Positions 19,404 to 64,000 of a stretch of DNA of 64,000 nt are shown here, in pieces (within the stretch, counting starts at the first letter, position 1; each line of letters starts with the position of its first letter). The notes beneath the pieces were generated by a model. That model saw nothing but the letters and a program-made list of their open reading frames with translations, was not told the origin of the DNA and ran no database searches. Location: NCBI RefSeq assembly GCF_905475395.1, contig NC_058342.1, forward strand, positions 29,594,140 through 29,658,139, in the 5' to 3' direction. Source of the stretch: Chrysoperla carnea (Eukaryota > Arthropoda > Insecta > Neuroptera > Chrysopidae). Position numbers and translations under genes: made by a program.

Positions 19404-19420
19404 CGCCCCCGGGTGGGCTC

Positions 19421-19457
<37 letters not shown>

Positions 19458-19477
19458 GCCAATTGCGCCACGGAGGC
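19404..19477 (-). tRNA. tRNA-Asn (GTT), copy 1
   Basis: The 74-nt cloverleaf has acceptor GCCTCCG/CGGGGGC (one T-G pair) with discriminator G, D-arm GCGC..GCGC, anticodon arm TTCGG CTGTTAA CCGAA (GTT, Asn), and T-arm GGTGG TTCGAGC CCACC. TTTT follows on the - strand. Confidence 0.95.
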
Positions 19478-20010
19478 TGTTGATATTGTAAATGACATTG
19501 AAATTCAAATAAATACGTTACAACTCAAATATTAAAAAAAGAAAGTGTACAAAAATAATAAAATTAACTTTTTAAAGGTTTATTCTCTAGTTTTGAGTTA
19601 AACATACAATTCAAATAAATTATCGCGTTCAGATTCGATTCTCAATGGATCCATTAACACTTTTTCACATATTTATTTTAAGTTTCGATACCTACCATCA
19701 AAAACAATCGTATATTATATAATAATGTATTGTGTGACTACTTTACGTATATTTTCATTTTGCAATGTAACATTTTTTAATATGTGAATGTGTTAACCTT
19801 TACGATTATATTAATAATTCAACATTCTCTGTGTGTGTATGCGAAAACAGTAGCAAATCGTAATAGTTTCAGTGTTGCCAAAATGGCTTCTTCATTATAT
19901 CGAAAAGAAAGATTCATAAATCAGTAAGCAATTAAAATTAATAAGTTTTAAGAATCCCCGACAAAACAGGATCTCTTGGGCGCTAACTTCAATTACATAA
20001 AAATTATTTG

Positions 20011-20013
20011 CGC

Positions 20014-20064
<51 letters not shown>

Positions 20065-20084
20065 GCCAATTGCGCCACGGAGGC
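20011..20084 (-). tRNA. tRNA-Asn (GTT), copy 2
   Basis: As copy 1 except for one base in the T-loop (TTCAAGC for TTCGAGC), which still fits the T-loop consensus. Its upstream flank (GTTATTCAAATAAAATTTAT) matches that of the pseudogene at 19222, including AAATCAAATAAAAACGTTAA, so the two arose from duplicated blocks. Confidence 0.95.
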
Positions 20085-20193
20085 TGTTATTCAAATAAAA
20101 TTTATTGGAAATCAAATAAAAACGTTAAATCCGAAGAACTTTAAAATTATTTACTGCAAATGTACGCATACGACGTGTGTAGTAAAATATTTG

Positions 20194-20210
20194 CGCCCCC
20201 GGGTGGGCTC

Positions 20211-20247
<37 letters not shown>

Positions 20248-20267
20248 GCCAATTGCGCCACGGAGGC
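20194..20267 (-). tRNA. tRNA-Asn (GTT), copy 3
   Basis: Mature sequence identical to copy 1. Its downstream flank (TACTGCAAATGTACG..TAGTAAAATA) is the same as that of copy 1, so these two are a block duplication about 790 bp apart. TTTT stop present. Confidence 0.95.
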
Positions 20268-24936: not shown

Positions 24937-25740
24937 TCCTTAAATAAAAAATTCCAATAAGATCGGATCAAACTTGTCTGTGTTAACAAAAAAAACGAAT
25001 TTTTTAACTTTATAACAAATAATGATGTGGGTGGCCTCTGTTATAGGCGTATATGTCAGAGAAACGGAGGTTAAACCCCATTATTTTTATTATTATTAAC
25101 TTTATGACGTCATCAGAATCCAAAAAATTTAATTTTGCTCTATCACATCCAAATTTTATCCAATTTTTATAAACCGAGTATGTAATCCTACTAAATTTGG
25201 GCCATACTTTCCTAATTTGTGATCAAAATTAACCTAGCTATGATAAGTTTCAAGAATGTGGAGTCCTCGTCCCGAAATTAAGCACATTAGTGATAGCTAG
25301 TGAAAAACTGACATCACAACTGAAAAGAATAACCCAAAATTAGTGGGTTTCAAAAAAAATTCCAATAAGATCGGATCAAATTTACCTGTGTTATAAAAAA
25401 AATCAAATTTTTTAACTTTATGACGTCACCAGAATCCAAAAAATTTAATTTTGCTTTACCACACCCAAATTTTATCTAATTTTGATAAACCAAGTATGTA
25501 ATCCTACTAAATTTGGGTCTTACTTTTTAAATTTGCGGTCAAAATTAACCCAGCTCTAATATATTTTAAGAGTATGGAACCCTGGTGCCAGAATTAAGCA
25601 CATTTGTGATAGCTAGCGTAAAACTGATATCAAAGCTGAAAATTATGACCAAAAATTAGTGGGTTTTAAAAAAGTTCTTATAAAATCGGACCAATTTTGC
25701 CTGTGTTATCAAAAAAATAAAATTTTTTAACTTTATAAAG
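24937..25740 (+). repeat. 315-bp tandem repeat, about 2.3 units, with a SINE insertion
   Basis: The phrase AACTTTATGACGTCA starts at 25098 and 25414, and AACTTTATAAAG at 25729, a spacing of 315-316 bp. Each unit contains AGATCGGATCAAA, CAAAAAATTTAATTTTGCT, GTATGTAATCCTACTAAATT, AATTAAGCACAT and GTGATAGCTAG. TGACGTCA, a perfect CRE/ATF consensus, is present at 25105 and 25421. Related copies: 29650-30230 in reverse and 62465-62720. Confidence 0.85.
25014..25097 (+). mobile_element. 5'-truncated SINE with 8-bp target-site duplication
   Basis: These 84 bp match the 3' end of the SINE at 8885-9175 (AATGATGTGGGTGGCCTCTG, GTTAAACCCCATTATT) and end in ATT repeats. AACTTTAT is present on both sides (25006-25013 and 25098-25105). 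This marks an insertion into an existing 315-bp repeat unit. Confidence 0.85.
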
Positions 25741-39445: not shown

Positions 39446-39730
39446 TAAATAGGGTTTATTTAATGATTGGATGCGTGGCTTTTGAGATATAATCCAAATT
39501 TGGACACGAAGAGCGATTTTCTCAGAAACTATGCATCCAATCGATACATAAACCTAATTTTCGTATTTTTTGGGTTAAAATTACCTTATATACATAGTTT
39601 TATGGAAATCGGATACAAAAATTTTTTCCCTTCAGAAAATTGCAAATAATCGAGACCCAGTTGACCTATGTTACTCATTTAGGAACTCGACCTCACTTTT
39701 TACGTCCTAAGCACGCTATAAAAATTTGGA
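39446..39730 (+). repeat. Chimeric repeat: one 307-bp-type unit joined to family A middle
   Basis: 39446-39650 follows the 307-bp unit (TTAATGATTGGATGC, TTTGAGATATAATCC, AAAATTACCTTATATACATA, GTTTTATGGAAATCGG). At 39655 it passes directly into GACCCAGTTGACCTATGTTA..CTCGACCTCACTTTTTACGT, the family A middle. There is no intervening sequence. Confidence 0.75.
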
Positions 39731-46561: not shown

Positions 46562-46672
46562 TTATAGTTTTGTATGTTTAACATTATCGGTCCAATAGTT
46601 TTGGATCGTCATCGCTTCTAAGCTGTTTAGGAACGAATCATTGTCCAAACTGTACATTTCTTCAGAATTTTC
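46562..46672 (-). CDS. Membrane protein exon 4 (C-terminal tail)
   Basis: Acceptor TTTTTTTTCCAG, then 36 codons from ENSEEMYSLDNDSFLNSLEA to VKHTKL and a stop. Phase 0. Rich in Asp/Glu/Asn/Ser with a Tyr and a Trp. Confidence 0.8.
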   Translation of the reverse strand, partial: ENSEEMYSLDNDSFLNSLEAMTIQNYWTDNVKHTKL

Positions 46673-49600
46673 CTGGAAAAAAAACATATGAAATAAATAT
46701 ATATATGAAAATTTAATAATACTAAAAAGATGACGAAGTCTTGGGAAATTGACCCATCCAAACAAACTTTCGCTCAATTTGGAGAGTTCATAGAGACACC
46801 CAAAGCCTTTCGTAAAAAACATTTCAACATAAAAAAGGTAAAGGAGTTGAGAATTGGATTAATTTCTGGACTGTTGAGGAGCATCTTTCATAATTTTTGT
46901 GTCATTTAACTTATTGGCACTATACGAGTGCCAGACACCTCTCTGATTAGGGCTCATGATTGAAAGTTGAAAAGGACCGTTCATTCGTCGCTGTTGTCAA
47001 AATTGTCAGAACGTGAAGCATTTGGAAACGCACTTTCATTGCAAATAACGAGTGAATTTTTGACTTCCTGTCCGGCAATGTGTTTTCGTCAAAGTTTAAC
47101 CTTCGTGTAATATTGAAGAGTATGGTTCCAAAAGTTGGGGGCTAAATTTTTCATTTTGTTGGGAAAGAAACAAACAAAATTAGATAAAATATTGCGATGA
47201 TTCAAAAATCGATCCTGTAAATGTGAAACAAATCGTTGTAGGGTATGTAGATTTTAATCCGGAAATAATCTTCAACTATTCAGTGGAAATGCGTTGTTTC
47301 ATAAATGGCTACATTAATAATAATAATAATATCTTTCTGCTGTCTAGAAGATTATTTAAAACTTTACGAAAAGTAATGATGAATTAGAAAAATTTAAATA
47401 AAATTTGTATATTCGGAAACGGAATGTGAAACTTTTCATATTCAGCAACATTAATCGGAACTGTTTAAGTAATGACATCGAAAGTCGGATTAAAATATTG
47501 CAATAAAATTCGTAACTTACCCGCATTGTACTATCATCAATATATCCACTCGAATCTAAATTACTACTTTTATCATTCAAACTTTGTGGTTTATTTAAAT
47601 ATCTACGTCGATATAAAACGAAACTAATTGCTCCAATCAATACACCAAATATTAAAACTCCAAACGATGCACCCGTAATTGTTGCCACTGTAAATATTGA
47701 ATTTGGATTCTCACGTGATTCAATGATATCGGTTGATGCACCCACTTTCTCTTGTACATTAATTTCATCGGTTGGCGTTACATCGATATCATCGATTATT
47801 AATTCTTTACGTTTTTGATCATTTGCTAACGATAATGTTAACGGATCTGTTGTATTTGAAGCAATGATTTCGTCATGATAGACAGTATCCTAGAAAAAGA
47901 ATGTGAACAAATTGATTTTTGTATCGTCAAATCATTTTTATGGCCGAGGTATTGGGAAATCAAACCACCCAAAATACGCATACAAATTTGCAACTCTAAC
48001 TCAACTTGGAGAGTCCGTGGAGATACCCAAGCCTTGAGAATCGCAAAAAAACATTATATTTCAACATAAAAAGGGCAAAGGGGCAGAAAATTGAATTGAT
48101 TTTTGGATTTTTGAAAAGAATTGATTGATTTTGAAAAGCAATGATTTCTATAGCAAGATATTTCGGGATGTTAAGTAGAACTTGATCATTAAAATTTCGC
48201 GGCAGATATGTGGCAAGCTAAGTTCTAAGAAATTGCCTTTAGATAATTCAATTGTGCTTGGGTAAAATTAATAAGGATCCAGTAAAAAGAATGGTAGGTA
48301 GCTCAATGTAGGGGGAATCTGGGCACACCACTCCACATTTTTACGTGTAGAAGCCGCTGGAAAATTTTGAGCAGTGTTCGCCTTGAAAGATATCGCGGTA
48401 CAGAAACTTTGGGCACTTTTACTGTTCATATGGTACCATCTGCTTACCAGCAGTAAGCATTCCCTGTTTCCAGGAAATGGGTTCTGAAACTCTATCTAAC
48501 GTGCGTTTGTCAGAGGACGCAATTTTATATTTTAGATATCAAGGAGGAGTTAGTGTAAAGTTAAATCCAAATTTGTGGGGTTATAGCCTTTGTCCTCCGG
48601 CCGCCATTTTTGAAAAAGAATACAAATGATTGTTAACTCCCGAATTAAAAAAAAGGGTGTTATAAGTTTGATCGCCATGTGTGTGTCTATGGTATCGTAG
48701 CACTTAAACGGATGAACCGATTTTAATTTTTTTTGTTTTATTTGAAAGGTAATTTAACGAAGAGTGTTCTAAGCTATGTTTCAAGTGCAAGTTTAGGGTT
48801 CCGTATCCAAGAAATTTGTCGGGGGTTTTTTATATTTTGTAAATTTCAATTAGATTTATTTTGTTGCAAATAAAATTCTTTTTGAACTTTGGTAGGTAAC
48901 TTCCATATACAAAATACTTACATTTAACGTTTTATTACCATCTGCAATACCAAACGTTGAATTTGGCAACAATGATTCAATCAATTCCGAATGATTAAAA
49001 TGATTCAACATTCGTATATCTTCATGTTGAATTGAACCGGTAGCATTTTGATCCGCTACCACCATACTCTCGTGCAATAAAACTTTCGTCACATTACTTT
49101 TCACCGTTGAACTATTTCCAGGATTCGTCATAGTAATCTGATGTAATTGCTTTGGTATTGTTGTATCAATTGCTTTGGGTGTTCTTGTCTCTTTAACCGT
49201 TGTCTCATTATTATTGATGATCACTGATGTGGATCGATTCTTTTGCTGTTGTTGATTTGTTGTTGTTGTTGCATTTGAATGTAGTAATTCATCATCGTTA
49301 TATTTAATTGTTGATGTTGATAGTATAATGGAATCATCTAGCGTTGTTGATTTATTGTATGTGGAATTATAGGAAGGGTATGAATTTGACACTTGAATTG
49401 AGCTGATTACTGAAATAATATAAAATAAAAAATATATGTTATTAATCATACTTTAAGTCTATTAATTATGGTAGCACAGTGGAACCTCGATAACTCGAAT
49501 CTCGAAAACAATGCAAAAAAAATTTTTCCTTTGGAATTTGATCAAACTTGGTGGATGGGGTAATTTTGAACCAAAAATTATGAAAATCGGATTAATTTAA

Positions 49601-52600
49601 CGATTGGATGCAGAGTTTCTGAGATATCGCAATATTTGGATCGATTTTAGTCCGTATCTCAAAAACTATTCGGCCAGTCATTAAATGCACCCGATTTTTG
49701 TACTTTTTGGGTCAAAATTACCTTATATACGGAGTTTTATCGAAATTGGAGATCAAAAAAATTTCTCAATTTTTTGCAATTTTTTTAAGGGGTACCCCTT
49801 TGAAAAAATCGAGAAAAACGCAAAAAAAAATTTTGCTTTGGAATTTGATGAAAGTCGGTGGATCGGGTAATTTTGACCCAAAAAGTATAAAAATCGGGTT
49901 AATTTAATGATTGGATGCAGAGTTTCTGAGATATCGCTAAATTTGGATCGATTTTAGCTCGTATCTCAAAAAATATTAGACCAGTCATCAAATTCACCCG
50001 ATTTTTGGACTTTTTGGGTCAAAATTACCTTATATACTGAGTTTTATCGAAATTGGAGATCAAAAAAATTTTTCGATTTTTTGCAATTTTTCTAAGGGGT
50101 ACCCCTTTGAAAAAATCGAGAAAAACGCAAAAAAAATTTTTGTTTCGGAATTTGATGAAAGTCGGTGGATGGGGTAATTTTGACCCAAAAAGTATAAAAA
50201 TCGGGTTAATTTAATGATTGGATGCAGAGTTTCTGAGATATCGCAATATTTGGATCAATTTTACCTCGTAACTCAAAAAATATTAGACCAGTCATTAAAT
50301 GCACCCGATTTTTGGACTTTTTGGGTCAAAATTACCTTATATGCTGAGTTTTATCGAAATTGGAGATTTAAAAAATTTTTCGATTTTTTGCAATTTTTTT
50401 AAGGGGTACCCCTTTGAAAAAATCGAGAAAAACGCAAAAAAAATTTTGTTTTGGAATTTGATGAAACTCGGTGGATGGGGTAATTTTGATCCAAAAAGTA
50501 TAAAAATCAGGTTAATTTACTGATTGAACCTACAGAAAGTTGCAATATAAGCGAGTATCATGGACAAAACTCTAACAAAAGTTAGAGTTCCCACCAAAAA
50601 ATTAAAATCCATAAAATTGTGAACAAAAGGGAAGTTAACTGAGGGCTATAACGTGATAGTCTTTGTTTTTATAGGAGAAATTACCCAGCAAAGTGAGCGG
50701 GTATCTGCTAGTACATAATATAAAACAAAGTCGTCAAAATTTTGACTTTACGAGCGATATTTCGGAGCGAAAATCTTTCGATAAGAGAAAACTGATCAGC
50801 CTAAACGTAGACTAATAAACATCGGTGACAACCCATATTATGCCTACTCATAACTTAACATTAACCGTATTAATTGTGATTTAAGTGTAATTGATATCCA
50901 ATTCAGTATATACAAGGTTTTTAAACAATTAATTCCATTAATTGTTATATTTACTTAATACTTGTTGGTTTTTTCAAGTTTTCTGTCATTTAATACAAAT
51001 ACAAAAAAAAATTTCTAAATGTACAATAGACCGTTTCACTTGAACTAGCACCCTGATTAGGTACCTGGTAGTACCTGAGTTAGTACCCATCCAACAAACA
51101 GTTTACATACAAAAATACAAAAAAGATACTTGAAACAATATGATAAAATTTTTGAAATTTTGCATATACTTTACATAAAATTTAAGAAATGACTATTAAA
51201 ATATTTTACAAATAATTATTTTTTAATAACCATTATTTATAAATTGCCCATTAATTTTTTTTAATGATCTTATATATTATTACTCTAGCAAGTTTTTTCC
51301 TGTCTTACCCTCAGCATTCACTCCTCATGATTCACTCTTCATTTTCAAGCTCATTATGTCTAGGCTTTGCGAAAAATATACTCGCGATCAAAAAATGTAC
51401 CGCTTAGGAAATGACTAAGCTAATTTAAAAACAAGTGAAAACAAACAATTGACTGAGTTAATTGTTGAAATACCATGTATAGACAATGTTGATTACTCTG
51501 TCACATTACACATACATACATGTCACACATATAACTGATATTTCCATATAATACATACTATACAATTTCCGCATAATTTGCGCTCTCACGAGTAAACAGT
51601 GATGTTTATGAAAAAATGTTTCAAACAAAAGTTGTTTATTTTTTATAAGAAACATTTTTTACGTTTAAACTTTTGTTCTATCTCTAACGATTTACAAGAC
51701 CCAATTGACCTGTGTTGCTCATTTACGAACTCGACTTTTTACGTCCTAAGTACGCTATAAAAATTTCAGCTTGATATCTCTTTTTGTTTTTGAGTTATCG
51801 TGATGACAGACTGACAGACGACAGACAGACAGAAAACCGGAGATGGACTATTCAGGTGATTTTATGAACGAACACCTATACCAAAATTTTGTTCATAGCA
51901 TCAATATTTTTAGGCGTTACAAACTTGGGACTAAATTTAGTATTATACCTTAATATATTTCATATGCATGGTATAATTAAGTTGTTTTTAGCCACGGGTA
52001 CCGGTAGCTCGGGAGTGTAATTCCTCACGGGCCGAGCTAGTATTAATAAATAATTTTTATGCTAATAAATTTCTATGACGTTTGTTTGTTTACCTACATT
52101 ATTTAAATTTTACACTCGATGTAAGTAAAAAACGACAGTTCTAGTAGGATATGACCATCCTTTTCTATTTATTTTCACCGAGTGTAGAAGTGTATGAAAA
52201 CGCAAAAATAAACAATATTTCGTTTTTTTATAAAAATTTAAAATTTATACAAAATTAAGAAAGAGATTTATTTCAAAACCTTTTTTACGTTATCTTGAAA
52301 GCAACTCCAGCAGAGAAAATTTGGGTTTTTTATTCTTGTCTCGATAGAATCGTATAGTTTCATTTTACTTAACACCAACTTCATCAGGAGACGCCTCTGC
52401 TTCTAGGTGACAAGATGTTCTTATTGAGGGCAATGAGGTACTCGACTCATTCTTTATTAATATTCCTGAACTGAAATGATAGGAATTGCTTTTTTCTCGG
52501 TTTTTAAGGTTTTGCATACCTTTTACAAAATCTCCGCATTAAGTTAAAGTGTTGAAAATCTGTTAAGTTAGAGAGTTGAATTGGTTGTTGACTATTAGTG

Positions 52601-55600
52601 TAACTTTCGTAAATGTCAACTTCCGAACACACCTACCAACTATTGTTTATAGAAATATCAAGAATTCCTGCGGTTTTTAAGATATTTGAGATGTCGGCTT
52701 GCTAGTCGACCCCCCTTCATGTAAATATTTCATGGCTGCAAAAAAATGAAACAACAAAAATCTGATTTCAATAAAAAGTATCGAATCATAAGAAGCACCT
52801 ATACTCTGCGCATATATGACAGAGTACATATCAGAGAATATTATTAAGTTTAGTAACGCTTAGAAATATTAATGATACAAACAAAATTTTGGTTTAGATG
52901 TTACCAAAGTAGTATGTTTCTTAGATGTTTTTCAGTTCGCGCGACGTCAAAAGTGACTTAGAATTCGTAAACAAACAATCCAAGTCAATTGGGTCAGTAG
53001 GGCCCATCATTTAAACCGTAAAAGATAGAAGAATAGTACAACACAAAAACAAATCTCCATGAAAAAATAAACAACTGTTACAAAAATTATTTTCGTAAAC
53101 ATCATAGTTTTCCCGCAAGGACGCAAATTAAGACGGAATAGTAGTTTCGGTTAGGTTAGGTTAGAGTGGCTGTCCTGGGGTGGGACACACTTAGACCATA
53201 ATGTCCGTTGTGATACCGAAAAAGAGCTGGCCCATTCCCGGCCACTACTCCATGAACCATTTGAAACTGTTTAAAAACAGCAGGAGAGCTTTGACGTCGA
53301 CGGACTTTAGGTCGGTGAGGTCGTCAAAGAGAGTCTCAAGTAAGTCCATCTCCTCATGACAACTCTGGGCAGTGACAGAGAAGATGAGACATTGTCTCCT
53401 TCTCCTCTCCACTGTGACAGCTCCTGCAGTAGTCGTAATACACTGCCAGGCCCAGGCGTTCAGCATGTCTGCCGTCCAACCAATATCCTGTAATAGCCGC
53501 AACAACTTTTCGAACAGACGCCCTTGGAATGTATGACGGAATAGTATAGACATACAGAATATTTTAACAATTAACTCAGTTAATTGTTGATTTTTTTGAC
53601 TTGTTCATCTGAAATTATGCATATACTATAAATAGAATTTAAAAAATGAATATTAAAATATTTTTTTAAATAAAAATAATAATTTTTTAAATAAACAAAT
53701 ATTTATTAAAAATTTATTTTTTTTTATGATAGGTACTTAATAATTGTTATGCTTATAGTCACAAGTATGTACATGTACTGAAGGACAAAACGCAACAATA
53801 AATTCAACTAATTAAAACGAATTAAATTAAATATAAAAAAAAATGAAAGTAAGAATTTTTATATTATAAGTACTTCTTAGATTTTGTATTGTCATAGATC
53901 AACATGAAACGGCATTGACCCATTGAAAAATACAATATGGTCATTAAAAGACTTTTTAAGAGTTGACATGTCTACTACATTTTTCATTTTAAGGTAATTC
54001 ACCCGTAAACACGTTATTAGGTGATATTTAAAAAAAATTATAATTAATGAATCATTGGTCAGGCGACATAATTTTCATATTTAATATGCAGGTAATTAAC
54101 ATGCAATTAAATGGTAAATAGAGCCGTCTTAATCACATTGGGCGCCGAGGTGGGCGAAAATCAACCTGCGCCTCTTATTAATACAAAAACCCTATCTAAA
54201 ATAAAGTTTTTTAAAAATCAAAATCAATTTTTCTGGCTTATTAGTTACATAAATTATAATCCCAAGGAATTTAAAATTTCTGGATGACCGATTTTATCAC
54301 TAATATAAGAACCATTCAAAATATCTCCACACAACTATCAATTTGAATGTCTCGGTAATGTATTTTATTTCGTCGCCAATAGATGTCAGGAAGACACATA
54401 ATTTGCAATCAATGTTTCAATTTTTTCTAAAAACACCTATAAAACGACGTTTTCTAAAAATGAAACCATGCTAGATCGATTTTTCCCCCCAAAAGCCCCT
54501 TACATACTAATTTTCATGAAAATCCGATGCGCCGATTAATCGTTTCCAAATCGGAAACGGCCAAAACGATTTTCATGAAAATTAGTATAAAGGGAGCTCT
54601 TGGGGCGAAAAATCGATCTAGTTTGGTTTCATTTTTAAAAAACGTTGTTTTATCTGTGTTTTTATGAAAAATTGAAACATTGACTGCAAAATATGACTCT
54701 TCCTGACATCTATTGGGGACGAAATAAATTACATGACCGAGACATTCAAATTGGTAATTGTGTGGAGTCATTTTAAATGGTTCCTTGTATTAGTGATAAA
54801 ATTTGTGCTTTTTAGATGAGAAAATACCGAGTAAAGCTCGGTCATTCAGGTACTGAAACATTAAAGCTTGTTGCTCACAAATATTTTAACATATAAAGGC
54901 CGTTTCATACTATACTAGGTTTGATAATTGTAAGTAATTTTGTAAGTTATAATCACAAAACGGCAAGGTTATTATTACATGAAAATTGTCGTAAAAAATT
55001 GATTTCGGTAGATTAATTTTCCTAAAAACATAAATATCCGTCCTTGATTCAGTAATAACAAACGACTTTAAAACTAAAATTTGCAATTGTAAAACTAATT
55101 GATCTAATTTTTAATTGTTCAAATCCGGGGTTTTAAATTTAAATTTATAAACAGGAAATTTTCAAATATCCTGTTATTCTTTTAATTTAAAAAAAAAACG
55201 TTACTTCACTATTTTTATTTATTCATTTCTTTCAATTAAGGTTATGCGACCACTACCATTTCTTCTTAACTCAAAATTTAACCGGAAATATACAAATTGA
55301 AATTTTGAATTTCTAGTTTGACAAGTGAAAACAAATAATTGACTAACTTAACTGTAGAAATACTCTGTACGTAGAAAGTGTTGAATGTCATTGCTTACAT
55401 TATTTTTAATAAATTAGAAGAGTTTAAAAAAGCAAAACATTTATGGTGGCCTTTCGACACAACCAAGTAAATGGTTTTCGAAAATTTCGAAAGTATTTTC
55501 TACGTTTTTCGAGAATGTTTCACAAAACAACTAGTTGAAGCTACCTGTAAATTTTCAGCTTCCTATCTTTTATAGCTTTCGAAAAAATGGACATCAAAGT

Positions 55601-57325
55601 TTTGTCCTAATTTGCGCTTTCATGAGTGATGTTTAGAAAAAAACGTTTCAAACAAAAGTTGTTTTTTTTTATAAGGAACTATTTTTATCTATAACAGTTG
55701 AAATTAACTTTTTTGTTTCTAACGGTTTACAAGAGGGGTCCTACGAACCCAAGACCCAATTGCGCCATGTTGCTCATTTACGAATCTGTATTCTGACCTC
55801 TATTAATGGAACCCTCTGTAAGTGAGACAGATATTTATTTATACCTCGATATCTGAGACACTGGGTAAGTTGAATACCCCTATAAGTGAGACAAATTTGT
55901 AGGCCCCTTCATGTCTCACTTAACCAGATTTCACTGTACTTGAATAAAAATCTTTGTACTCTTTTCTTCGCAATTGCGAAACAATAAGGTTATCTGCACA
56001 ATGGCTGTGCCATTAAAAAAAAATACCTCGCAAAAATATGAAATATAATTTATGCGTCTATTGTTAATTGTCTCCCATTCAATTTTACGTATTGTTTTGA
56101 AGGAGATCATTTAAAATTGCTCATTTACTTGCTATTCACATTAAAGAAAAACTATTAATTTTTCACCATCCCCGCCAATGGATTCGTAACCTACGTCAAA
56201 AATGCTTTAGTTTAGTTTTTTTTTCTGGCGATCTAGGAGCATTTTTAAAAAACGGCACTAAATTTCAATAATACGTCTAACTACTTCGAAAAGTGCGCCG
56301 GATATGCAACCACATTTGCTCACATTGTTTCGCTTTGGTTTTTGAGTTAAAAATAAACGCATTTAAACAACGATCATGACGAGTTTCTTGCCCCTCGAAC
56401 ATTTTTCGATTATCCATATAGTTCGCCCCTGTCTATTTATTGATCGTGCCCCCTAATTTGACTATTGCACAACTTCCTGTTCCTAGCAACTTTTTAACCA
56501 CAATAGGACTTCCTGAAAATTAACCATCATCCAATTTTGTTTAACGTAATTGGGAAAACCGAATTTTATATTTTATTATGCACTTCCTTTAGAAAACAGT
56601 ATTGAAAAAAAAAAATTAAGATCATACAATTTTAAAGAATTAAAAACTATAGTTAAGCCGATTGCCTTGGCTTCAATTGCGGTCGACTTCAAATACTTAG
56701 ATATTTCGAAATTTTTATTACATCTAATTATTGAGTACAAAATTTATTTTTTACTTTTTCTAATCAAAAAAGCTGAAGATCGCAACATAGATAGTTTTCG
56801 AGGAAGTTCAAAGATTTCTTTCAAAATTGATCCAAAAAAGTTGATTGATAATGAATAAAAACCGGTATTTTTAAAAAGTTTCTACAATAAGATCCTGTGA
56901 TTTTGGAAAAGTCGAAAGACTTTCTTATACAGCAAGAAATTTTATTTCCTTCACGATCGTAAAGTTTATTTTTACCAGTTTCGCTTGTTTGAATTTAATC
57001 CAGAACCATGTTAAAAAAAAAAACGTAAATTATAGTTAAAAAAATTCGAAAAACTATTTATTTTCGATTTTAATAACTCAGCAAGTATGACCGAAATTAA
57101 ATTTTATATTATAGAAAAACTATTTTCCACAACAATAGGGTGATTGCTTTGAAATTCTACCGATTCTTTTTAACTATTTAAGGAAGTGGTGGCAACGTTT
57201 TTCTGTTTCCCACTGCGAAGGAAGTAAATTCATCAAAGCCTTTTCGGCACTTAAGTATCTAGAAAAATTTTAAACTTACCAAAAAACGTTATCCAAAACC
57301 AATGCATCCAATATGGCATAATCAT
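46562..57325 (-). CDS. Single-pass type I membrane protein, mucin-like ectodomain (four exons)
   Basis: Exons 57325-57280, 49409-48922, 47889-47521 and 46672-46562 join in frame to 337 codons and a stop. Residues 1-22 (MIMPYWMHWFWITFFVISSI..) form a strong signal peptide. Residues 23-240 are a Ser/Thr/Asn-rich ectodomain with about ten NxS/T sites, a Gln run and no Cys pattern. IFTVATITGASFGVLIFGVL and IGAISFVL (243-270) form the transmembrane helix, followed by the stop-transfer YRRRY. The 66-residue tail has LDSSGYIDDS and ends EEMYSLDNDSFLNSLEAMTI, QNYWTDNVKHTKL, with Tyr motifs that could be signalling or sorting sites. The tail looks far more constrained than the ectodomain. I do not recognise the family. 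The first exon is an inference from splice phase and signal peptide; a read-through start at 49449 (MINNIYFLFYIISVISS) is the alternative. Confidence 0.75.
46733..46870. repeat. Intronic repeat, copy next to exon 4
   Basis: GAAGTCTTGGGAAATTGACC, TTTGGAGAGTTCATAGAGAC, ACCCAAAGCCTT and ATTTCAACATAAAAAAGG parallel 47940-48110. It lies 61 bp upstream (in gene sense) of the exon 4 acceptor. Confidence 0.75.
47521..47889 (-). CDS. Membrane protein exon 3 (juxtamembrane, transmembrane helix, tail start)
   Basis: Acceptor CTTTTTCTAG, donor GTAAGT, 123 codons in phase 0. It starts DTVYHDEIIASNTTDPLTLS, crosses the helix and ends SSGYIDDSTMR. Confidence 0.85.
47940..48110. repeat. Intronic repeat, copy next to exon 3
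   Basis: GGTATTGGGAAATCAAACCA, CTTGGAGAGTCCGTGGAGAT, ACCCAAGCCTTGAGAATCGC and TTTCAACATAAAAAGGGCAA mirror the copy at 46733-46870 at the same distance (about 50-60 bp) from the neighbouring exon. Confidence 0.75.
48650..48800 (+). repeat. LINE 3' tail-like repeat in intron 2
   Basis: AAAAAAAGGGTGTTATAAGT, TGTGTGTCTATGGTATCGTA, GGATGAACCGATTTT. Shared wording with 32325-32480 in LIPT1 intron 1. Confidence 0.55.
48922..49409 (-). CDS. Membrane protein exon 2 (ectodomain)
   Basis: Acceptor TATATTATTTCAG, donor GTAAGT after ACGTTAAAT. It codes the Thr/Ser/Asn-rich ectodomain (for example LLHSNATTTTNQQQQKNRST, NPGNSSTVKSNVTKVLL). The upstream sequence in the same frame is open as far as an ATG at 49449, which gives the alternative start. 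Confidence 0.8.
49481..49505 (+). mobile_element. pogo/Tigger-type end (solo)
   Basis: CAGTGGAACCTCGATAACTC is the usual terminal wording. It directly adjoins the 307-bp array. Confidence 0.45.
49506..50560 (+). repeat. 307-bp tandem repeat, about 3.4 units, forward
   Basis: The marker AAGGGGTACCCCTTTGAAAA starts at 49787, 50094 and 50401, exactly 307 bp apart. Each unit has AAAAATCGAGAAAAACGC, GGTGGATGGGGTAATTTTGA, TTAATTTAATGATTGGATGC, TCTGAGATATCGC and TTTTGGGTCAAAATTACC. The array ends with TGATTGAACCTACAGAAAGT. Adjacent units are highly alike. It lies in intron 1 of the membrane gene, about 95 bp from exon 2. Confidence 0.92.
50561..51430. other. Intron 1 sequence with an element tail
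   Basis: About 50580-50712 (GTTAGAGTTCCCACC, ATTACCCAGCAAAGTGAGCG, GGTATCTGCTAGTA) is the tail of the element seen at 23988-24460. The remainder is AT-rich. Confidence 0.5.
51431..51977 (+). repeat. Family A interspersed repeat, near full-length copy
   Basis: All landmarks in order, from ACAAGTGAAAACAAACAATT to CATATGCATGGTATAATT. The GGACCCAAG block is shortened (TTACAAGACCCAATTGACC). Confidence 0.85.
52840..53605 (-). repeat. Family A copy, reverse, split by a LINE
   Basis: 52840-53144 runs from the tail (TAAGTTTAGTAACGCTTAG) to GCAAATTAAGACGGAATAG. 53547-53605 continues with TATAGACATAC and TTAACTCAGTTAATTGTTGA, then TGACTTGT. The LINE at 53145-53534 and its duplicated target separate the parts. 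Confidence 0.75.
53145..53534 (-). mobile_element. I-like LINE, 5'-truncated insertion with 12-bp target-site duplication
   Basis: The - strand codes KLLRLLQDIGWTADMLNAWA, then in a second frame YCRSCHSGEEKETMSHLLCH followed by CPEL (the Cys-His knuckle), and in the first frame again DDLTDLKSVDVKALLLFLNS and FKWFME with a stop. The 3' UTR ends CTCTAACCTAACCTAACCGA. GACGGAATAGTA lies on both sides (53133-53144 and 53535-53546). Shifts between frames show at least two indels in a copy of only 390 bp. Confidence 0.9.
53606..54290. other. Intron 1 AT-rich stretch
   Basis: A scrap at 54118-54175 (GAGCCGTCTTAATCACATTG) relates to 26885. Otherwise nothing. Confidence 0.45.
54291..54802. repeat. 512-bp near-perfect palindrome
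   Basis: The left arm opens ATTTTATCACTAATATAAGA and the right arm, reverse complemented, ATTTTATCACTAATACAAGG. Further matched phrases are TTTGAATGTCTCGGT, CAATAGATGTCAGGAAGA, CAATGTTTCAATTTTT, CTAGATCGATTTTTC and ATACTAATTTTCATGAAAAT. Arms are about 250 bp, most bases identical, around a centre near 54548 (CCAAATCGGAAACGG). No coding part is seen. It lies in intron 1 of the membrane gene. Confidence 0.92.
55321..55802 (+). repeat. Family A variant copy
   Basis: The head (ACAAGTGAAAACAAATAATT) and the part from CTAATTTGCGCTTTCATGAG to TTGCTCATTTACGAATCTGT are family A. Between them, about 55390-55605 is different sequence (GAATGTCATTGCTTACATTA.., TGGTGGCCTTTCGACAC), partly shared with the fragment at 28010. 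This may be a distinct subfamily. Confidence 0.7.
55803..55938 (+). mobile_element. pogo/Tigger-type right end (same family as 59951-60802)
   Basis: AACCCTCTGTAAGTGAGACA, GATATTTATTTATACC, CCCCTATAAGTGAGACA and ATGTCTCACTTAACCAGATT..CACTGTA match the last 140 bp of the element at 59951-60802. Only this end is present, attached to a family A copy. Confidence 0.8.
55939..57279. other. Intron 1 AT-rich stretch
   Basis: The open frame 56550-56858 has no recognisable domain, and its composition is that of the background. Nothing else recognised. Confidence 0.4.
57280..57325 (-). CDS. Membrane protein exon 1 (signal peptide), inferred
   Basis: ATG at 57325 gives MIMPYWMHWFWITFF and one base, then donor GTAAGTTT. 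Joined to TA of exon 2 this forms Val and completes a hydrophobic signal peptide MIMPYWMHWFWITFFVISSI. A frame-keeping join has a one-in-three chance and the donor is strong. The 7.9-kb intron makes transcript support desirable. Confidence 0.55.
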
Positions 57326-58369
57326 CTTCTCATTTAAAACACTGACATTATCTAAAAAACGAGAAAACATTTTGAACAAAAAAATTTCCCAAAAGAAAAT
57401 CTTTTTTTACATCAAAGTATTTTATCAAAAAACAATCACTTTCTAATCACTGTCACACCAAAATGAAAAATAAATTTTTTTTAATCAAAAAAACTACATA
57501 AACAGTTTTCACTTACTACGTATTTTCCTAAATAAAAAAAATTTAACACAAATGACTAATTTTGTAGTATCCTATCAATCACGTGGGGGGGTACATAAAT
57601 AAATAAAAAGGTATTTTCTGTTTTAAACACGAAAATTAGTCATCAAAATACATTAATTAACAATTCATTATCTCATCAGTTAAGAAAAAAAATATGAGAA
57701 ATATGTTAATTAAAACGTTTGATAAAAATTATTAAACAGCTCAAACATAATTAAAACAAATATCAATTGTTTATTTAAAAATTTGCATACCGATTAATAG
57801 TAATTTATTAATCAAACTACACAAAACACTACTACTTGATTACTCGATCAAATATTCTAATCAAGTTTTTAATGAAGTTTATACATTAATAAATATAGTT
57901 TTGATGTTTGACATATGAAATATCAACCATTTTATTTATGATTTAAGTAATAGCAAAAAAAAATAAAAACAATTATAGTCAATATTTATTTTTAGGCATG
58001 TTTATGTTTTCGTAGCGAATTTCTTATCAATGAGTTGTACATTTTTAAAACGACTTACTCTAATATTTGTAAATACTGTGCGAAGGTAGTGTCATCTTTA
58101 CGGTTAAATTGTGAAGTTGGTAGTACAAATTAATGGGTGGTTTGAAACTTTGATAAATGTTTTTAATATCCCGGAAATATAAAATGATGAGTAATCTATC
58201 ATAATAATAATATATCCCCGGGAATACCTATTAGTTAATTCATACTCATAGGATAATTTTCTAGGTGTAATACCAAGAAATATAAATTATTCTTTTATTT
58301 CGAGTTAGTTGAAAATTTCAGCAGTTTCACTTGAGGTTTTATTAAGATACTCGCTGACATTGCAACTTT
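57326..58369. other. 5' flank of the membrane-protein gene
   Basis: Likely holds the 5' UTR or promoter. TTAGATAATGTCAG just before the start (57338-57351 on the - strand) could be the acceptor of a 5' UTR intron. No repeat recognised. Confidence 0.3.
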
Positions 58370-59290
58370 CTATAGGTTCAATCATTAAATTAATCTATAT
58401 AATAATTTTTATACTTTTTGGTTCAAAATTATCCCATCCACCGAGTTTCATCAAATTCTGAAACACAAATTTTTTTGTGTTTTTCTTGATTTTTTCAAAG
58501 GGGGGAAAAAATTGCAAAAAATCTAGAAATTTTTTTTTATCTCCAATTTTGATAAAACTCAGGATATAAGGTAATTTTGACCCAAAAAGTCCAAAAATCG
58601 GGTGCATTTGATGCCTGGCCGAATATTTTTTGAGATACGAGCTAAAATCGATCCAAATATTGCGATCTCTCAGGAACTCTGCATCCAATCATTAAATTAA
58701 CCCGATTTTTATACTTTTTGGGTCAAAATTACCCCATCCACCAAGTTTCATCAAATTCCAAAGCAAAAAGTTTTTTGCGATTTTCTCGATTTTTTCAAAG
58801 GGGTACCCCTTAAAAAAATTGCAAAAAATCGAAAAATTTTGTTAATCTCCAATTTCGATAAAACTCGGTATATAAGGTAATTTTGACCCAAAAAGTCCAA
58901 AAATCGGGTGCATTTGATGACTAGTCTAATAGTTTTTGAGATACGAGCTAAAATCGATCTAAATATTGCGATTTCTCAGAAACTCTGCATCCAATCATTA
59001 AATTAACCCGATTTTTATACTTTTTGGGTCAAAATTACCCCATCCACCGACTTTCATCAAATTCCGAAACAAAAATATTTTTTGCGTTTTTCTCGATTTT
59101 TTCAAAGGGGTACCCCTTAAAAAAATTGCAAAAAATCGAAAAATTTTGTTAATCTCCAATTTCGATTAAACTCAGTATATAAGGTAATTTTGACCCTAAA
59201 AATACAAAAATCGGGTGCATTTAATGACTGATTGAATAGTTTTTGAGATACGGACTAAAATCGATCCAAACATTCGATATATCAGAAACT
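58370..59290 (-). repeat. 307-bp tandem repeat, about 3 units, reverse
   Basis: TCAAAGGGG marks start near 58495, 58795 and 59102 (spacing 300 and 307). It is the reverse complement of the array at 49506-50560, including the same terminal phrase ACTTTCTATAGGTTCAATCA. The shorter first spacing reflects a small loss where GGGGTACCCC became GGGGGGAAAA. Confidence 0.92.
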
Positions 59291-59950
59291 CTATCCACTC
59301 GCTTCGCTGTACAATTGCAATTTTAAATATAAAAGACTATTCGTTATAAACTTCACTTCATTTGCCATCACTTATTTCCGCTTAGAAAAAAAATAAAGAA
59401 CATTTAGTATTCTAAATTCTAATACACTTGCACCCACCGAAAGGATTTAATTGAAATGGTAGTGACCCCCACATGAAGTAGCATCAAATGATATCCCATT
59501 TGAAAAAATAAACTAAAAATCCTTTACAAGAGTATAGAAAAAAATACTTTACAAGAGTATAAAGTAATTTTTTTGCTCTAAATAAAAATATAAAAAAATT
59601 TACATACATGCGAAATACAACAAAAGTTATAATTGAAAATCAGGAAACCCAATCACAAATTATATTACTTTCAATAATGTCAATCGTTCGATTGATAATA
59701 CATTGTTCACTCGAGAGTTGAAATATTAAATTTTTGAAAATAAGCGATTTATTAAAAATGATAACAAGGAACTAAAACTGTATACAATAAACTATAACAG
59801 TACACTACACATTACTTGTTCTTTAAAAACACATGTAATTATTTATCATATTAATAATTAATATCGTATTTCATTTTATAAATATTACAATGATAAAATT
59901 GCAAATGTAAGCATTGTCAGTAGACATAAAATACATAGCATAATCATATA
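59291..59950. other. Gene-free AT-rich stretch
   Basis: Nothing recognised. Confidence 0.4.
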
Positions 59951-60802
59951 CAGTGGAACTTGATTAAGTGGGACCTGGATAAGTGAGAAACCTCTATGTA
60001 ACTGGAACTCATGCTGAGGTCCTAAATACTTTGTCACTGAATTATCTCTGTTAGTGGGACGAAGCAAATCTCTATATCTGGGACTCGTTCTTTCGATTTT
60101 ATCTTACCTCTATAACTGAGATAGCGAGTAAATATTATATGCATTAACCTCTGTAACTGAGAACTGAGATAGCATCGTCTTATTTGTTTATTTACTTATT
60201 CTTATTATACCCCCAAATTTCACACTCAACTAATTTTGAGGCTCAAAGACCTTCAGTTTTAGTTTTGCTTTACTATCATACGGATGTTTATTTGAAAAAT
60301 GCCGAAACGAAGGCTCAAATCGTTACCAGTACGTGGAAAACTGAAGTTAATATCCGTTTATGAAAGTGGAAAGACACGCGATGAAGTCTGTATCGAATTT
60401 AAAGTGCCAAAATCTACTCTTTGTAGAATAATTCAGAATAAAGATAAATCAGAATATCCCGAACTTGAACAGTGTTTGCTAACATGGGTCAAGCAACTTC
60501 GTTACTTAAACGCTCCGGTAAGTGGACCGATGCAAAGAAAAGGCACAAGATTTCGCGCGAAAGATCGGTTTTCATAATTTTTGTAGCATCAATGGTTGGT
60601 TGGAAGGGTTTAAAAAGAGAAACGATAAGTTTTCAAAGCATTTTGTGGAAAAAGTAACACCATTAATGGAAACCTCTGTAAATTAGACAGATATTTATTT
60701 ATATCTGGATATCTTGGGTATCTGAGACATTGGGTAAGTGGAATAACTCTATAAGTGAGACTTTGAAGGCCCCGTAATGTCTCACTTAACCAGGTTCCAC
60801 TG
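59951..60802 (+). mobile_element. pogo/Tigger-type DNA transposon, internally deleted
   Basis: Ends CAGTGGAACTTGATTAAGTG and (reverse complement) CAGTGGAACCTGGTTAAGTG are inverted repeats, each flanked by TA, the target of this superfamily. A second inner repeat uses the same 'AAGTGAGA' wording. The 852 bp contain only the N-terminal part of the transposase (60299-60660). It is too short for a full element, about 2-3 kb with a DDE domain, so it is a deletion derivative. Confidence 0.88.
60299..60660 (+). pseudogene. pogo/Tigger transposase, N-terminal remnant
   Basis: MPKRRLKSLPVRGKLKLISV and YESGKTRDEVCIEFKVPKST then LCRIIQNKDK form the psq-type HTH of CENP-B/pogo transposases. YPELEQCLLTWVKQLRYLNA and PVSGPMQ begin the second HTH domain (Tc5/CENPB type). 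After a frame change near 60560 the text VASMVGWKGLKRETISFQS continues it. The DDE catalytic domain is absent. Confidence 0.85.
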
Positions 60803-62464
60803 TATTGTTATGATCAAAGAATCATGTTTACTTTCGTGTAAGCACGTTGTTTTCAGAGCCGCTAGGAAGTCAGGAAGCCCATGTAATTGAGGAGTCAATT
60901 CAAAAAAGTCGTAAATCATCCAAATTTGTTCAGCTGTTCAACGTGATTGTCGAGTAACAAACATCCAAAACATACAAACTTTCACATTTATAAATAAGAT
61001 TGGTATTTCGACATCATACGCCAATATATGTATAAAACTGAAAACGACACCAAATTTTCAATAAATTTTGACCGAAATATCTTTTTAATTTGAATTGTGC
61101 GAGGCCCTCCTTTTCATTTCTTCTCAAATTTTAAAGTAAATCAGATAAGTTCGTGATAAACGTGATCTAAAATGAATAAACTTTTAAACAATAAATTTCA
61201 AGGTTTTTAAAGTTCGTTGATTTTTTTTTTCAAAATTTTTATCACCTTGAAGGAACCTATAATAATTATGGTCGCTATATCCGATAGTCATTATAAGCGA
61301 TATACTAATTTTAATTTAATTTACATAAGAAGTTTTTAACGTGTATATTTGAATCTAGAGAGTAATTGAATCAAAATCTTCCAATGTGCAAATATTACGA
61401 AATATATCGTAATCTAGGCATTTTGTATGACGTAAATGTATTAAAATGCTCTAAAAATATCGTAAAAGCGTCAAAAACAAAACGTTTTTTTATGTTTTCT
61501 TTTTAGAAAGCTTCGTAAGGTAGAGTTCTTTTTACATAAACAGAATCTGTGATAAATTTTGCTTCAAGATGAAAAATTTTTGAAGGTCAATCACCGATTA
61601 ATTTTTGTATAATTAACATTATTGTTAGTTCTTCCATAAGGTACTGTGTTAAAAATCACAATTTTAAAATGAAATATACAGTTTTGGGCCCCACAAGAGG
61701 CTCCAAAACTATATTTATTGTTATCAAGGGACTTTGAACTCTCATCTACTGCAAAAAAAAAAAACAAAAAAAATTAACATTCACCAATCACCGTACTTGG
61801 TCAAACTGTCGAACTACCTTAAGAAGGCGCTTTTCTTAAATTGCTACTTAATTTAGACAGAATGTTCTTTCCCATTTAATTTGTGCGAAGTTCTTTGTTG
61901 TGAAATAGTAAAAAATAATTTTTTATTTTTCATATTTTAATTACCGTATTGTTTTCATGGCCAGTCATTATCTTATCTCTAGTATTTACTGCTAAATATT
62001 TACAATTCAACAGAAAGTTTATTACACCTAACATCCAACATATTATTGTTAAAACAAAGAATATCTAACTAATTTTAAGCGAAATGATTCAACTATTGAA
62101 ACATTCAATTTGCTTTCCGAAAACCACAGATGCAAAAGAAAAATTCATTAATTGTGGTTTTTAAATAAAAGTACGGTTTTTTTTAATACTTTCACATATT
62201 TGGTATTGTAAAGAATTTTGTATTGTTGCATAGTATATAGATGACGGTGTTATTATGTTAGTTTCACAAAATTATGGCAGATGGCAATGTTACACCATTG
62301 GATTAAAGATATATATTATTCTATGTGATTAAAGATTAAATTAGAAATTGGATACAAATTTGTCTAGATAATGGAATTGTCACTAATTTCAATAATTATG
62401 GATAATTATTCATAATTTGTATTTTATTGTTTGCATAAACGATTAGGAAAGTAAATCTAAAAAG
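60803..62464. other. Gene-free AT-rich stretch with element scraps
   Basis: 60965-61005 holds the reverse head of the 23988-type element (AACTTTCACATTTATAAATA). 61262-61310 (ATGGTCGCTATATCCGATAG, TCATTATAAGCGATA) matches 18485-18545. 61690-61820 is the second copy of the repeat in LIPT1 intron 3. Confidence 0.5.
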
Positions 62465-62720
62465 GCATCACAGCCTAATTTTATCCAAGTAAAATAAACC
62501 AAGTATGTAATCCTAACAAATTTGGGTCATAATTTTCAAATTTGTGATCAAAATTAACCTAGCTCTAATAGGTTTCAAGAATGTGTACTACTGGTCTCGG
62601 AATTAAGCACGCAAGTGATAGCTAGCGAAAAAGTTACATCCCAGCTGAAAAGAATGACCCAAACATAGTAAAAAAAATTCAATAAAATCGGATCAAGTTT
62701 GCCTGTGTTTTTAAACATTT
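62465..62720 (+). repeat. 315-bp repeat, single partial unit
   Basis: AAGTATGTAATCCTAACAAA, TGTGATCAAAATTAACCTAG, GGAATTAAGCACGCAAGTGA and CAATAAAATCGGATCAAG match the unit of 24937-25740. The TGACGTCA part is not included. Confidence 0.75.
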
Positions 62721-63405
62721 GTCTTCTTACAATTACAGTCAAATTACACTGCTTATATGTAATAACAATTGCATATATTTCAATAAAAAAGCTTAGAATT
62801 TTTTTAAAAGTTTCATATTGTTTCATATAATTCTTTTGAAATCAATTTTCTAATTTATTTAACAATCATTTGGAGTTTTATACAAGCTTATCAATTGATA
62901 GAAAAAAAAATTTGTAAAAATTAAATCAAATTGATTCACAGATTATTAAGAGCTAAGTGATACGATTATGAAAACTCTCCCTATCTGCTCGCGTAGAATT
63001 CGGTGATATATAAGCGATGCAACGTCAAGCCATACAAATGATTTTATAAATATTTATATAAAAAAGCTTTAAAAAGTGTTATAAATTGAAATTTATTTGA
63101 AAAAAGTTCAAAATTTATTTAGCCCATAAAAAGCGTATTAAAAACATTGTCGTATTTATCCATTGAGACAGAGACAGGCATACATTTTTACTATACAATT
63201 GCAATTGAAGCATCTTATAAAAAGGGTTTTTCAATAAGAATGATACTTTTTAAAACTTGAATAAAAAGAAACAACGTGTCAAAAAAAAATTGTGCTTTAT
63301 TATGGAACTTAAGTTTTATTGGGAAAATATCTTTATAAAATCAATCTACGACTTCTTTAGCAGGACTTGACTATTTTTTCTTTGAATTTATTACAATTTT
63401 TTTTA
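62721..63405. other. Gene-free AT-rich stretch
   Basis: A solo TTTTTCAATAAGAATGATAC end (transposon family of 5527-5934) lies at 63228. No exons. Confidence 0.4.
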
Positions 63406-64000
63406 ACCATATATATATGAAATATGTCAAGGTATACTAAGTTTAGATCCAAGTTTGTAGCGCTTGAAAACATTGATGCTAAGAACAAAAGTTATAGGTA
63501 AAAAAGGTTCCTTATTAAAAATAAACAACTTTTGTTTGAAAAATTTTTCCGTTAAAATTTTTACAGATATCTTTAATTTATGGTTCAAAATGATGATTAT
63601 AGATGGAATAGATTTATGATCATCATTTTGAATCATAAATTAAAGAATTCTGTCTGTCTGTCCGTCTGTCATCACGATTACTCAAAAACGAAAAGAGATA
63701 TCAAGCTGAAATTTTTATAGCGTGCTGAGGACGTAAAAAGTGAAGTCAAGTTCGTAAATGAGCAACATAGGTCAATTGGGTCTTGGGTCCGTAGAACCTA
63801 TCTTGTAAACCGTTAGAGATAGAAGAAAAGTTTAAATGTAAAAAATGTTCCTTATAAAAAAACAACTTTTGTTTCATACATTTTTTCGTAAACAACACTG
63901 TTTACCCGTGAGGGCACAAATTAGGCGTAAATTGTATAGTATGTATTATTATATGGGAATATCAGTATTATTATATGGGAATATGTGTGACATGTATGTA
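63406..64000 (-). repeat. Family A copy, reverse, interrupted and running off the window
   Basis: It runs from the tail (ACCATATATATATGAAATAT, CAAGTTTGTAGCGCTTG) to GGGAATATGTGTGACATGTA at the window edge. Near 63495-63652 there is extra sequence: a second short piece of the family A middle (AAGGTTCCTTATTAAAAATA, ACAACTTTTGTTTGAAA) followed by the palindromic MITE. Confidence 0.8.
63553..63653. mobile_element. Palindromic MITE, second copy, right end truncated
   Basis: ATTTTTACAGATATCTTTAA, ATGGTTCAAAATGATGATTA and the inverted ATGATCATCATTTTGAATCA, TAAATTAAAGAATTCTGT form a hairpin of about 47-bp arms. Compared with 24160-24302 the right arm stops at TTCTGT, merging into CTGTCTGTCC of family A. 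Confidence 0.85.

What the first reader, a model, noticed from the sequence alone, without database searches (positions are those of the whole stretch)
49506..59290. Two 307-bp satellite-like arrays in opposite orientation around the first exon of a membrane-protein gene
About 3.4 forward units end about 95 bp from exon 2, and about 3 reverse units lie about 1 kb upstream of exon 1. They end in the same terminal phrase. If the transcript starts beyond 59.3 kb, one pre-mRNA would carry about 0.9 kb of complementary sequence on both sides of exon 1, enough for a very long intramolecular duplex. Such inverted intronic repeats are known to promote A-to-I editing and circular RNA formation. That the pair does anything here is inference.
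Basis: partly seen in the sequence, partly recalled or inferred. Interest (0 to 1): 0.75.

Follow-up and report, generated by a model that had tools for sequence, protein, structure and literature searches.

The report
Two intronic Helitron repeat arrays, lacewing
The two facing repeat arrays beside this lacewing gene are fragments of a common jumping-gene family that carries its own short satellite; they could pair as RNA, but nothing found here shows that the pair does anything.

Summary
A forward array (49502-50526, 3.3 x 307 bp) and a reverse array (58405-59292, 2.9 x 306 bp) match inversely at 91.1% over 967 columns and share a 33-bp flank. The gene is real: its four-exon protein is 337/337 identical to LOC123302690 of the green lacewing Chrysoperla carnea.

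The arrays are best read as internal repeats of a dispersed non-autonomous Helitron. The forward copy keeps a 3' tail ending at 50711: hairpin, CTAG, then host T. T follows in 22 of 22 recognised ends. In 11 of 12 tail loci, repeat units end 183-190 bp before that terminus. The array query gave 5301 unscored candidates in 559 Mb, so inverted neighbours are expected by chance, roughly hundreds.

Each unit is a 288-column imperfect palindrome without covariation. A duplex between arrays would have longer perfect runs (68 bp against 22). Co-transcription is unproven: the published start codon hints that the transcript begins, or is spliced in, at 57326-57369. A 72-nt exon is a poor circle substrate. 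Verdict: ordinary transposon biology.

The parts
49502..50526 (+). Forward array, 3.3 tandem units of 307 bp: internal repeats of a non-autonomous Helitron, 5' part missing
   Evidence: (TRF), (genome copies)
50527..50711 (+). 3' tail module of the element, ending CTAG; host T at 50712
   Evidence: with a query running on to 50900, the 7 listed matches (other than the window itself) that pass query 1200 all stop at window-equivalent 50710-50727; T follows in 22 of 22 recognised ends; recount
50683..50702 (+). 3' terminal hairpin ACCCAGCAAAGTGAGCGGGT, 5 nt before CTAG in this degenerate copy; in consensus-like copies a 16-nt stem-loop lies 9 nt before CTAG
58346..59301 (-). Reverse copy: about 3 units plus 33 bp of the tail, truncated at both ends (array by TRF 58405-59292)
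39447..39628 (.). Third, older fragment of the same repeat family (at most about 75% identity; matches both orientations because the unit is palindromic)
57280..57325 (-). Exon 1 coding part (MIMPYWMHWFWITFF + 1 nt)
48922..49409 (-). Exon 2 of the same gene (Ser/Thr/Asn-rich ectodomain)
47521..47889 (-). Exon 3 (contains the hydrophobic, probably transmembrane segment)
46562..46672 (-). Exon 4 (conserved C-terminal tail and stop)
57326..57369 (-). Interval where the transcript start or a 5'UTR splice acceptor probably lies (candidates: AG ending at 57352; TCAGTG, A at 57343)
   Evidence: inferred from the NCBI start codon

Best explanation
Both arrays are decayed copies of one non-autonomous Helitron family of Chrysoperla carnea. 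The family carries a central array of a 307-bp, internally palindromic satellite-like unit, and its 3' end is a 16-nt hairpin followed by CTAG, set before a host T. Copies were presumably mobilised in trans by the RepHel protein of autonomous Helitrons present in the genome. One lies in intron 1 of LOC123302690 without its 5' part. The other lies about 1 kb upstream of exon 1 in the opposite orientation and has lost both ends. The inverted arrangement is what random orientation of an abundant repeat gives. Any double-stranded RNA would be a by-product, possible only if an upstream 5'UTR exon makes both copies part of one pre-mRNA. Shown: array anatomy, dispersal, 3' terminus, similar 3' architecture of autonomous elements, lack of covariation in the unit. 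Inferred: mobilisation in trans, two separate insertions, absence of selected function.
For: Dispersed: 173 matches from 40 scored of 5301 first-look candidates, listed on contigs C1, C2, C4, C5 and C6. 3' boundary: with a query running on to 50900, the 7 listed non-self matches that pass query 1200 stop at 50710-50727 (recount; the list was cut). T follows in 10 of 10 recognised ends among 41 array loci (9 read CTRR, one CTAT) and in 12 of 12 tail loci (all CTAG). In 11 of these 12, units end 183-190 bp before the terminus. A 5' motif with TATATATAAAAGAATGG lies upstream of the array in 4 of 41 loci; in L037 and L042 the start reads A|TC. Autonomous Helitrons: 64 PF14214 matches, seven in frames of 1462 aa. 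Two such copies, 99.7% identical over the 340 bp compared, part 4 bp past a hairpin...CTAG. No covariation in 41 units, 124 pairs: 4 double changes against a shuffle mean of 6.9, 323 broken cells against 317.
Against: No fetched locus has 5' motif, array and intact 3' tail together, so the whole element is inferred from overlapping partial copies. In the tail search 40 of 40 scored matches, the window's own included, end at query 184-187, but the query itself ended at 187, so that alone does not prove a boundary. The tail of the two autonomous copies differs in sequence: the mobilising partner is not identified. 23 of 41 array loci fail the score for the shared flank. F is the best match of R among 40 loci and R ranks third for F, and they alone share two flank variants, so local duplication is not excluded. 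Paired positions of the unit vary less than unpaired ones (minor-allele mean 0.050 against 0.073), which could hint at some constraint on the stem. The 39 comparison loci were those most like F, not a random sample. The genome search with R as query did not complete.
Confidence: 0.85

Rival explanations
1. The two arrays are parts of one pre-mRNA (an upstream 5'UTR exon lies beyond 59.3 kb), pair into a duplex of about 0.9 kb around exon 1, and so cause A-to-I editing, nuclear retention or back-splicing.
For: 91% inverted identity over 967 columns; perfect runs to 68 bp; duplex predicted far more stable than separate folds; an acceptor-like AG ends at 57352 with the same pyrimidine fraction (0.76) as the exon-2 acceptor (exons 3 and 4: 0.82).
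Against: No RNA data. The published start is equally explained by transcription starting near 57343. No GTRAGT donor on the minus strand at 58346-64000 (about 1.7 expected by chance at 0.30 per kb, so weak). About 7.8 kb of intron separates the arrays, and each can fold alone first. A 72-nt exon is a poor circRNA substrate (general knowledge).
Confidence: 0.07
2. The reverse copy arose by a local inverted duplication of part of the forward copy (both its ends fall inside the forward copy), not by a separate insertion.
For: R corresponds to an internal part of F (49601-50559). F is R's closest array of 40 loci. Both flanks carry GAACC and TTGCAAT, a combination seen only in these two of 30 loci with a readable flank. 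They share 3 rare unit variants.
Against: Units are not more alike in collinear register: the R unit at the F2 position is closer to F3 (95.8%) than to F2 (94.8%), and the next R unit is 92.3% to F2 and 92.0% to F3. 16 of 820 locus pairs, F-R among them, share at least 3 rare variants, some on different contigs such as L038-L040. No homology seen outside the element in the window self-comparison.
Confidence: 0.15
3. The arrays are an independent satellite DNA that spread by its own route (for example as extrachromosomal circles), and the Helitron tail is an accidental neighbour.
For: Most array loci have unrelated 5' flanks by eye, and 23 of 41 fail the score for the shared 3' flank, though L022, L031 and L032 of these keep the terminus.
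Against: When searched by tail alone, 11 of 12 tail loci have units ending at a near-constant 183-190 bp before the terminus.
Confidence: 0.05

Closest known systems
Cg_HINE elements of the Pacific oyster (PMC7492417; abstract, two results sections and passages read)
   Same: Short satellite-like central arrays carried by non-autonomous rolling-circle transposons, dispersed in both orientations, sometimes truncated, sometimes kilobases apart in one gene (bindin: two truncated copies about 4.5 kb apart); 3' palindrome.
   Different: Cg_HINEs are Helentron-type, with subterminal inverted repeats, a 5' microsatellite and TT target preference. The lacewing family ends in CTAG before T, and no subterminal repeat was found (mostly truncated copies). 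The palindromic unit was not compared with theirs.
DINE-1 / HINE of Drosophila, mites and Culex (PMC4067079; passages read)
   Same: Non-autonomous rolling-circle elements with a 3' stem-loop, some with central tandem repeats, in high copy number.
   Different: Defined by subterminal inverted repeats and TT insertion; here canonical Helitron signs (CTRR end, hairpin ending 13 nt from the 3' end).
Autonomous Helitrons of C. carnea (L062, L063)
   Same: 3' end of hairpin, short spacer, CTAG, then host T.
   Different: They encode RepHel; no similarity of the tail beyond the architecture (best chance-level matches of 10-14 bp).
Intronic inverted repeats that promote A-to-I editing or circular RNA (search listing only; otherwise recalled)
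   Same: Two long complementary sequences on either side of an exon.
   Different: Co-transcription of both arms unproven; tiny exon; no RNA evidence; each arm is also self-complementary.

Membership tests
Canonical Helitron (non-autonomous), definition as in passages of PMC4067079 | 3' end CTRR | tested here: met
   9 of 10 recognised ends among 41 array loci (one reads CTAT); 12 of 12 tail loci read CTAG. Ends were found with a motif allowing 6-7 substitutions, so CTAG itself was part of the motif.
Canonical Helitron (non-autonomous), definition as in passages of PMC4067079 | 16-20 nt palindrome about 11 bp from the 3' end | tested here: met
   GCCCAGCAAAGCGGGC folds into a stem-loop ending 13 nt from the 3' end, -5.0 kcal/mol with DNA parameters; degenerate in the window copy (-3.5)
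Canonical Helitron (non-autonomous), definition as in passages of PMC4067079 | Insertion between A and T without target-site duplication | tested here: inconclusive
   3' neighbour T in 22 of 22 recognised ends (T was not part of the motif). 5' neighbour A in the 2 loci where the 5' end reads TC. No empty site examined.
Canonical Helitron (non-autonomous), definition as in passages of PMC4067079 | 5' end TC | tested here: inconclusive
   5' motif upstream of the array in 4 of 41 loci, TC readable in 2. The window copies lack this end.
Canonical Helitron (non-autonomous), definition as in passages of PMC4067079 | Rep/helicase-coding elements in the genome | tested here: met
   64 PF14214 matches, seven in frames of 1462 aa; the partner of this very family was not identified
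HINE / Helentron | Subterminal inverted repeats at both ends | tested here: inconclusive
   Reverse complement of the terminal 14 nt, up to 2 mismatches, upstream of the array: 0 of 41 loci (L023 had the forward form, a second 3' end). Most loci have lost the 5' end.
HINE / Helentron | TT target with a run of terminal Ts | tested here: not met
   17 of 22 ends have a single T after CTAG, 5 have two or more; 5' side not readable in most loci
Long heterochromatic satellite DNA | Long homogeneous arrays | tested here: not met
   The 41 loci seen hold 2.97-6.43 units; long arrays elsewhere in the genome are not excluded
Functional intronic inverted-repeat pair (editing or circRNA) | Both arms in one transcript | not testable with these tools
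   No RNA data; boundary inferred at 57326-57369
Functional intronic inverted-repeat pair (editing or circRNA) | Complementary stretches long enough for a stable duplex | tested here: met
   (prediction only)

The most novel reading that the evidence does not exclude
A Helitron that ships a palindromic satellite plants self-pairing RNA modules in many introns. Where two copies face each other across a short signal-peptide exon, as here, the duplex regulates inclusion or editing of that exon, so the element acts as a dispersed source of intronic double-stranded RNA in lacewings.
Probability: 0.04. Interest if true: 0.6.

Novelty: new member of a known kind. Interest (0 to 1): 0.2.

Why it matters
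A pair that looks like a designed inverted repeat around an exon can be what an abundant, array-carrying transposon gives by chance. It adds a lacewing example of satellite-like arrays carried by Helitrons of canonical type. The listings (no paper) show no title on this family; of those papers none was opened, so prior description is not excluded. The palindromic unit makes the family a usable natural test of whether intronic self-complementary DNA is edited or made into small RNA in lacewings.

Tried and rejected
Selected RNA structure in the unit: not supported. One unit per locus (41 rows), 124 pairs of the consensus fold: 4 double changes against a shuffle mean of 6.9 (288 of 300 shuffles reach it), 323 broken cells against 317. 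Against this: paired positions vary less than unpaired ones (0.050 against 0.073).

Local inverted duplication: considered, left as a rival.

Helentron/HINE membership: subterminal repeat not found, T run absent in 17 of 22 ends.

Known RNA families at the arrays: none; the 10 Rfam matches in the window are all tRNA. Pfam: no match above cut-off in the two host-gene exon frames scanned; the whole protein was not scanned.

It was estimated from 157,487 flanking bases of the 39 loci, which held 2 further pieces, one diverged array-like piece (76%) and one tail fragment (77%), so copies as similar as F and R are rarer than this suggests; and from the unscored first-look count. The third density (47 per Mb, from this window) is biased and not used.

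Other start-like sites: one search also lists TCATTT at 58185, 57553 and 57464; a start at any of them would also exclude the reverse array from the transcript.

Script troubles: one search did not find the fetched loci and was replaced; one search timed out and was replaced.

Full report
OBSERVATION. Tandem Repeats Finder reports 49502-50526 (307 bp, 3.3 copies) and 58405-59292 (306 bp, 2.9 copies). BLAST within the window aligns 49601-50559 to 59301-58346 in inverted orientation at 91.1% over 967 columns; the match runs 33 bp past the array on the tail side. The gene is on the minus strand: exon 1 coding 57280-57325, exon 2 48922-49409, exon 3 47521-47889, exon 4 46562-46672 (splice sites read). 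The spliced product is identical over 337 of 337 residues to 'uncharacterized protein LOC123302690 [Chrysoperla carnea]'. Of 384 relatives, 120 were listed, from many insect orders; most of the listed rows align only a part of about 27-45% of the query at high identity. The held genome, 559,487,470 bp in 337 contigs, agrees in size with the published 560 Mb C. carnea assembly (PMC10116181, abstract start seen in the listing).

WHAT IT IS. The forward array with its flank as query gave 173 matches from 40 scored of 5301 candidates (the match list was cut). I fetched the 39 scored copies other than the window's own, with flanks. With the two window copies they make 41 loci of 2.97-6.43 units. 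138 nearly full units are 95.9% identical within a locus and 90.4% between loci. Past the array many loci share a tail of about 185 bp that stops at ...GCCCAGCAAAGCGGGCGGGTATCTGCTAG, followed by sequence that differs from locus to locus. The query ran on to 50900, yet the 7 listed non-self matches that pass query 1200 stop at 50710-50727 (recount). In one search, 10 of 41 loci (the window's F included) had this end within 6 substitutions; 9 of the 10 read CTRR, one CTAT, and all 10 have T next. Searching by the tail alone (window 50527-50713) gave 2255 candidates, 40 scored, on C1 to C6; that query stopped at the terminus, so its ends say little about the boundary. Twelve of these were fetched: 12 of 12 read CTAG then T, and 11 of 12 have repeat units upstream, 0.13 to 1.61 unit lengths, ending 183-190 bp before the terminus (L051 also lists one inverted partial match, as expected of a palindromic unit; L056 has none). 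A 5' motif with TATATATAAAAGAATGG lies upstream of the array in 4 of 41 loci; in L037 and L042 the start reads A|TC. Hairpin plus CTAG plus host T is the canonical Helitron 3' end as described in PMC4067079 (passages read).

AUTONOMOUS RELATIVES. The genome has 64 matches to Helitron_like_N (PF14214), seven in open frames of 1462 aa; some matches are pieces of one element. Pieces downstream of two such copies (L062, L063) are 99.7% identical for 340 bp and part 4 bp past CCCGGGCGAAGCCGGGTTTTTAAGCTAG, with T next in both. So the resident autonomous Helitrons end in the same architecture, though the tail sequence differs. The partner of the array-carrying family was not identified.

THE PAIR. 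F keeps the array and the 3' tail and lacks the 5' part; R lacks both ends. Units of F and R average 92.6% identity; R's closest of 40 other loci is F, and F's third closest is R. They share two flank variants found together only in these two of 30 loci with a readable flank, of 53 examined, and 3 rare unit variants, a level reached by 16 of 820 locus pairs, F-R included. They are of one subfamily. A local duplication is possible, but unit-by-unit identity is not collinear, so I favour two insertions. The comparison loci were chosen for likeness to F.

IS THE ARRANGEMENT UNUSUAL? Density is 9.5 per Mb if each first-look candidate were a copy, and 12.7 per Mb from 2 further pieces in 157,487 flanking bases, one array-like at 76% and one tail fragment. 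With random orientation, 9-12% of copies would have an inverted neighbour within 9.8 kb, some 245-441 pairs genome-wide. Both densities are rough, and pairs as alike and as long as this one would be fewer. Still, the arrangement needs no special cause.

CAN IT PAIR? The two arrays have perfect complementary runs of 68, 67, 59 and 46 bp. The predicted duplex is -1341 kcal/mol with 895 pairs, against -328 and -341 for the arrays alone in the minus strand. But each unit is an imperfect palindrome, 75% over 288 columns, with perfect internal runs to 22 bp, so each array can fold by itself as soon as it is made, about 7.8 kb of transcription before its partner exists. The unit's hairpin shows no compensatory change; paired positions are somewhat less variable than unpaired ones, which I note but cannot explain. 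I read the palindrome as inherited sequence rather than a maintained structure.

IS IT CO-TRANSCRIBED? Unknown. The only upstream in-frame ATG before the stop at 57409 is at 57370, yet the NCBI protein starts at 57325. Automatic annotation usually takes the longest frame (general knowledge), so the modelled transcript probably begins, or is spliced in, at 57326-57369. That interval holds both an acceptor-like TTTTCTCGTTTTTTAG (G at 57352) and a TCAGTG (A at 57343). If spliced, the circularisable exon would be 57280-57351, 72 nt, not 57280-57325.

VERDICT. The anatomy is real. It is best explained by an abundant Helitron family with a central satellite, a kind known from oyster and fly genomes in Helentron form (PMC7492417, PMC4067079). 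The regulatory reading is untested, with several features against it.

Noticed in passing
G000:C3:3767553-3809834: Seven Helitron_like_N matches in one orientation; the first six are spaced 5,813-5,815 bp apart, as in a head-to-tail tandem array of Helitrons, which rolling-circle transposition could produce.
   Followed up: no
G000:C6:6.5-12.8 Mb: 32 of the 64 Helitron_like_N matches (some of them pieces of one element) lie in about 6.3 Mb of the contig that also holds this window: a strong local accumulation.
   Followed up: no
window 7675-8065, 11301-13643, 19223-20267: Ten tRNA genes in clusters: three tRNA-Phe in a 159-bp tandem repeat, three tRNA-Gly, four tRNA-Asn, one of them a weak match.
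   Followed up: partly
window 25096-25736: Another satellite-like tandem, period 316 bp, two copies, 84% matches; not found by the array query.
   Followed up: no
window 49478-49501: Just left of the forward array: CAGTGGAACCTCGATAACTCGAA, resembling a pogo/Tigger-type terminal repeat (recalled, not tested).
   Followed up: no
window 46562-46672 and 47521-47889 (minus): The host gene's membrane segment and C-terminal tail are strongly conserved across insects (many listed relatives are 70-85% identical over about 27% of the protein), without a Pfam match above cut-off in the two exon frames scanned: an uncharacterised conserved membrane protein with a fast-changing ectodomain.
   Followed up: partly
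unit alignment, 41 loci: Stem positions of the palindromic unit vary less than loop positions (0.050 against 0.073) although there is no covariation.
   Followed up: no
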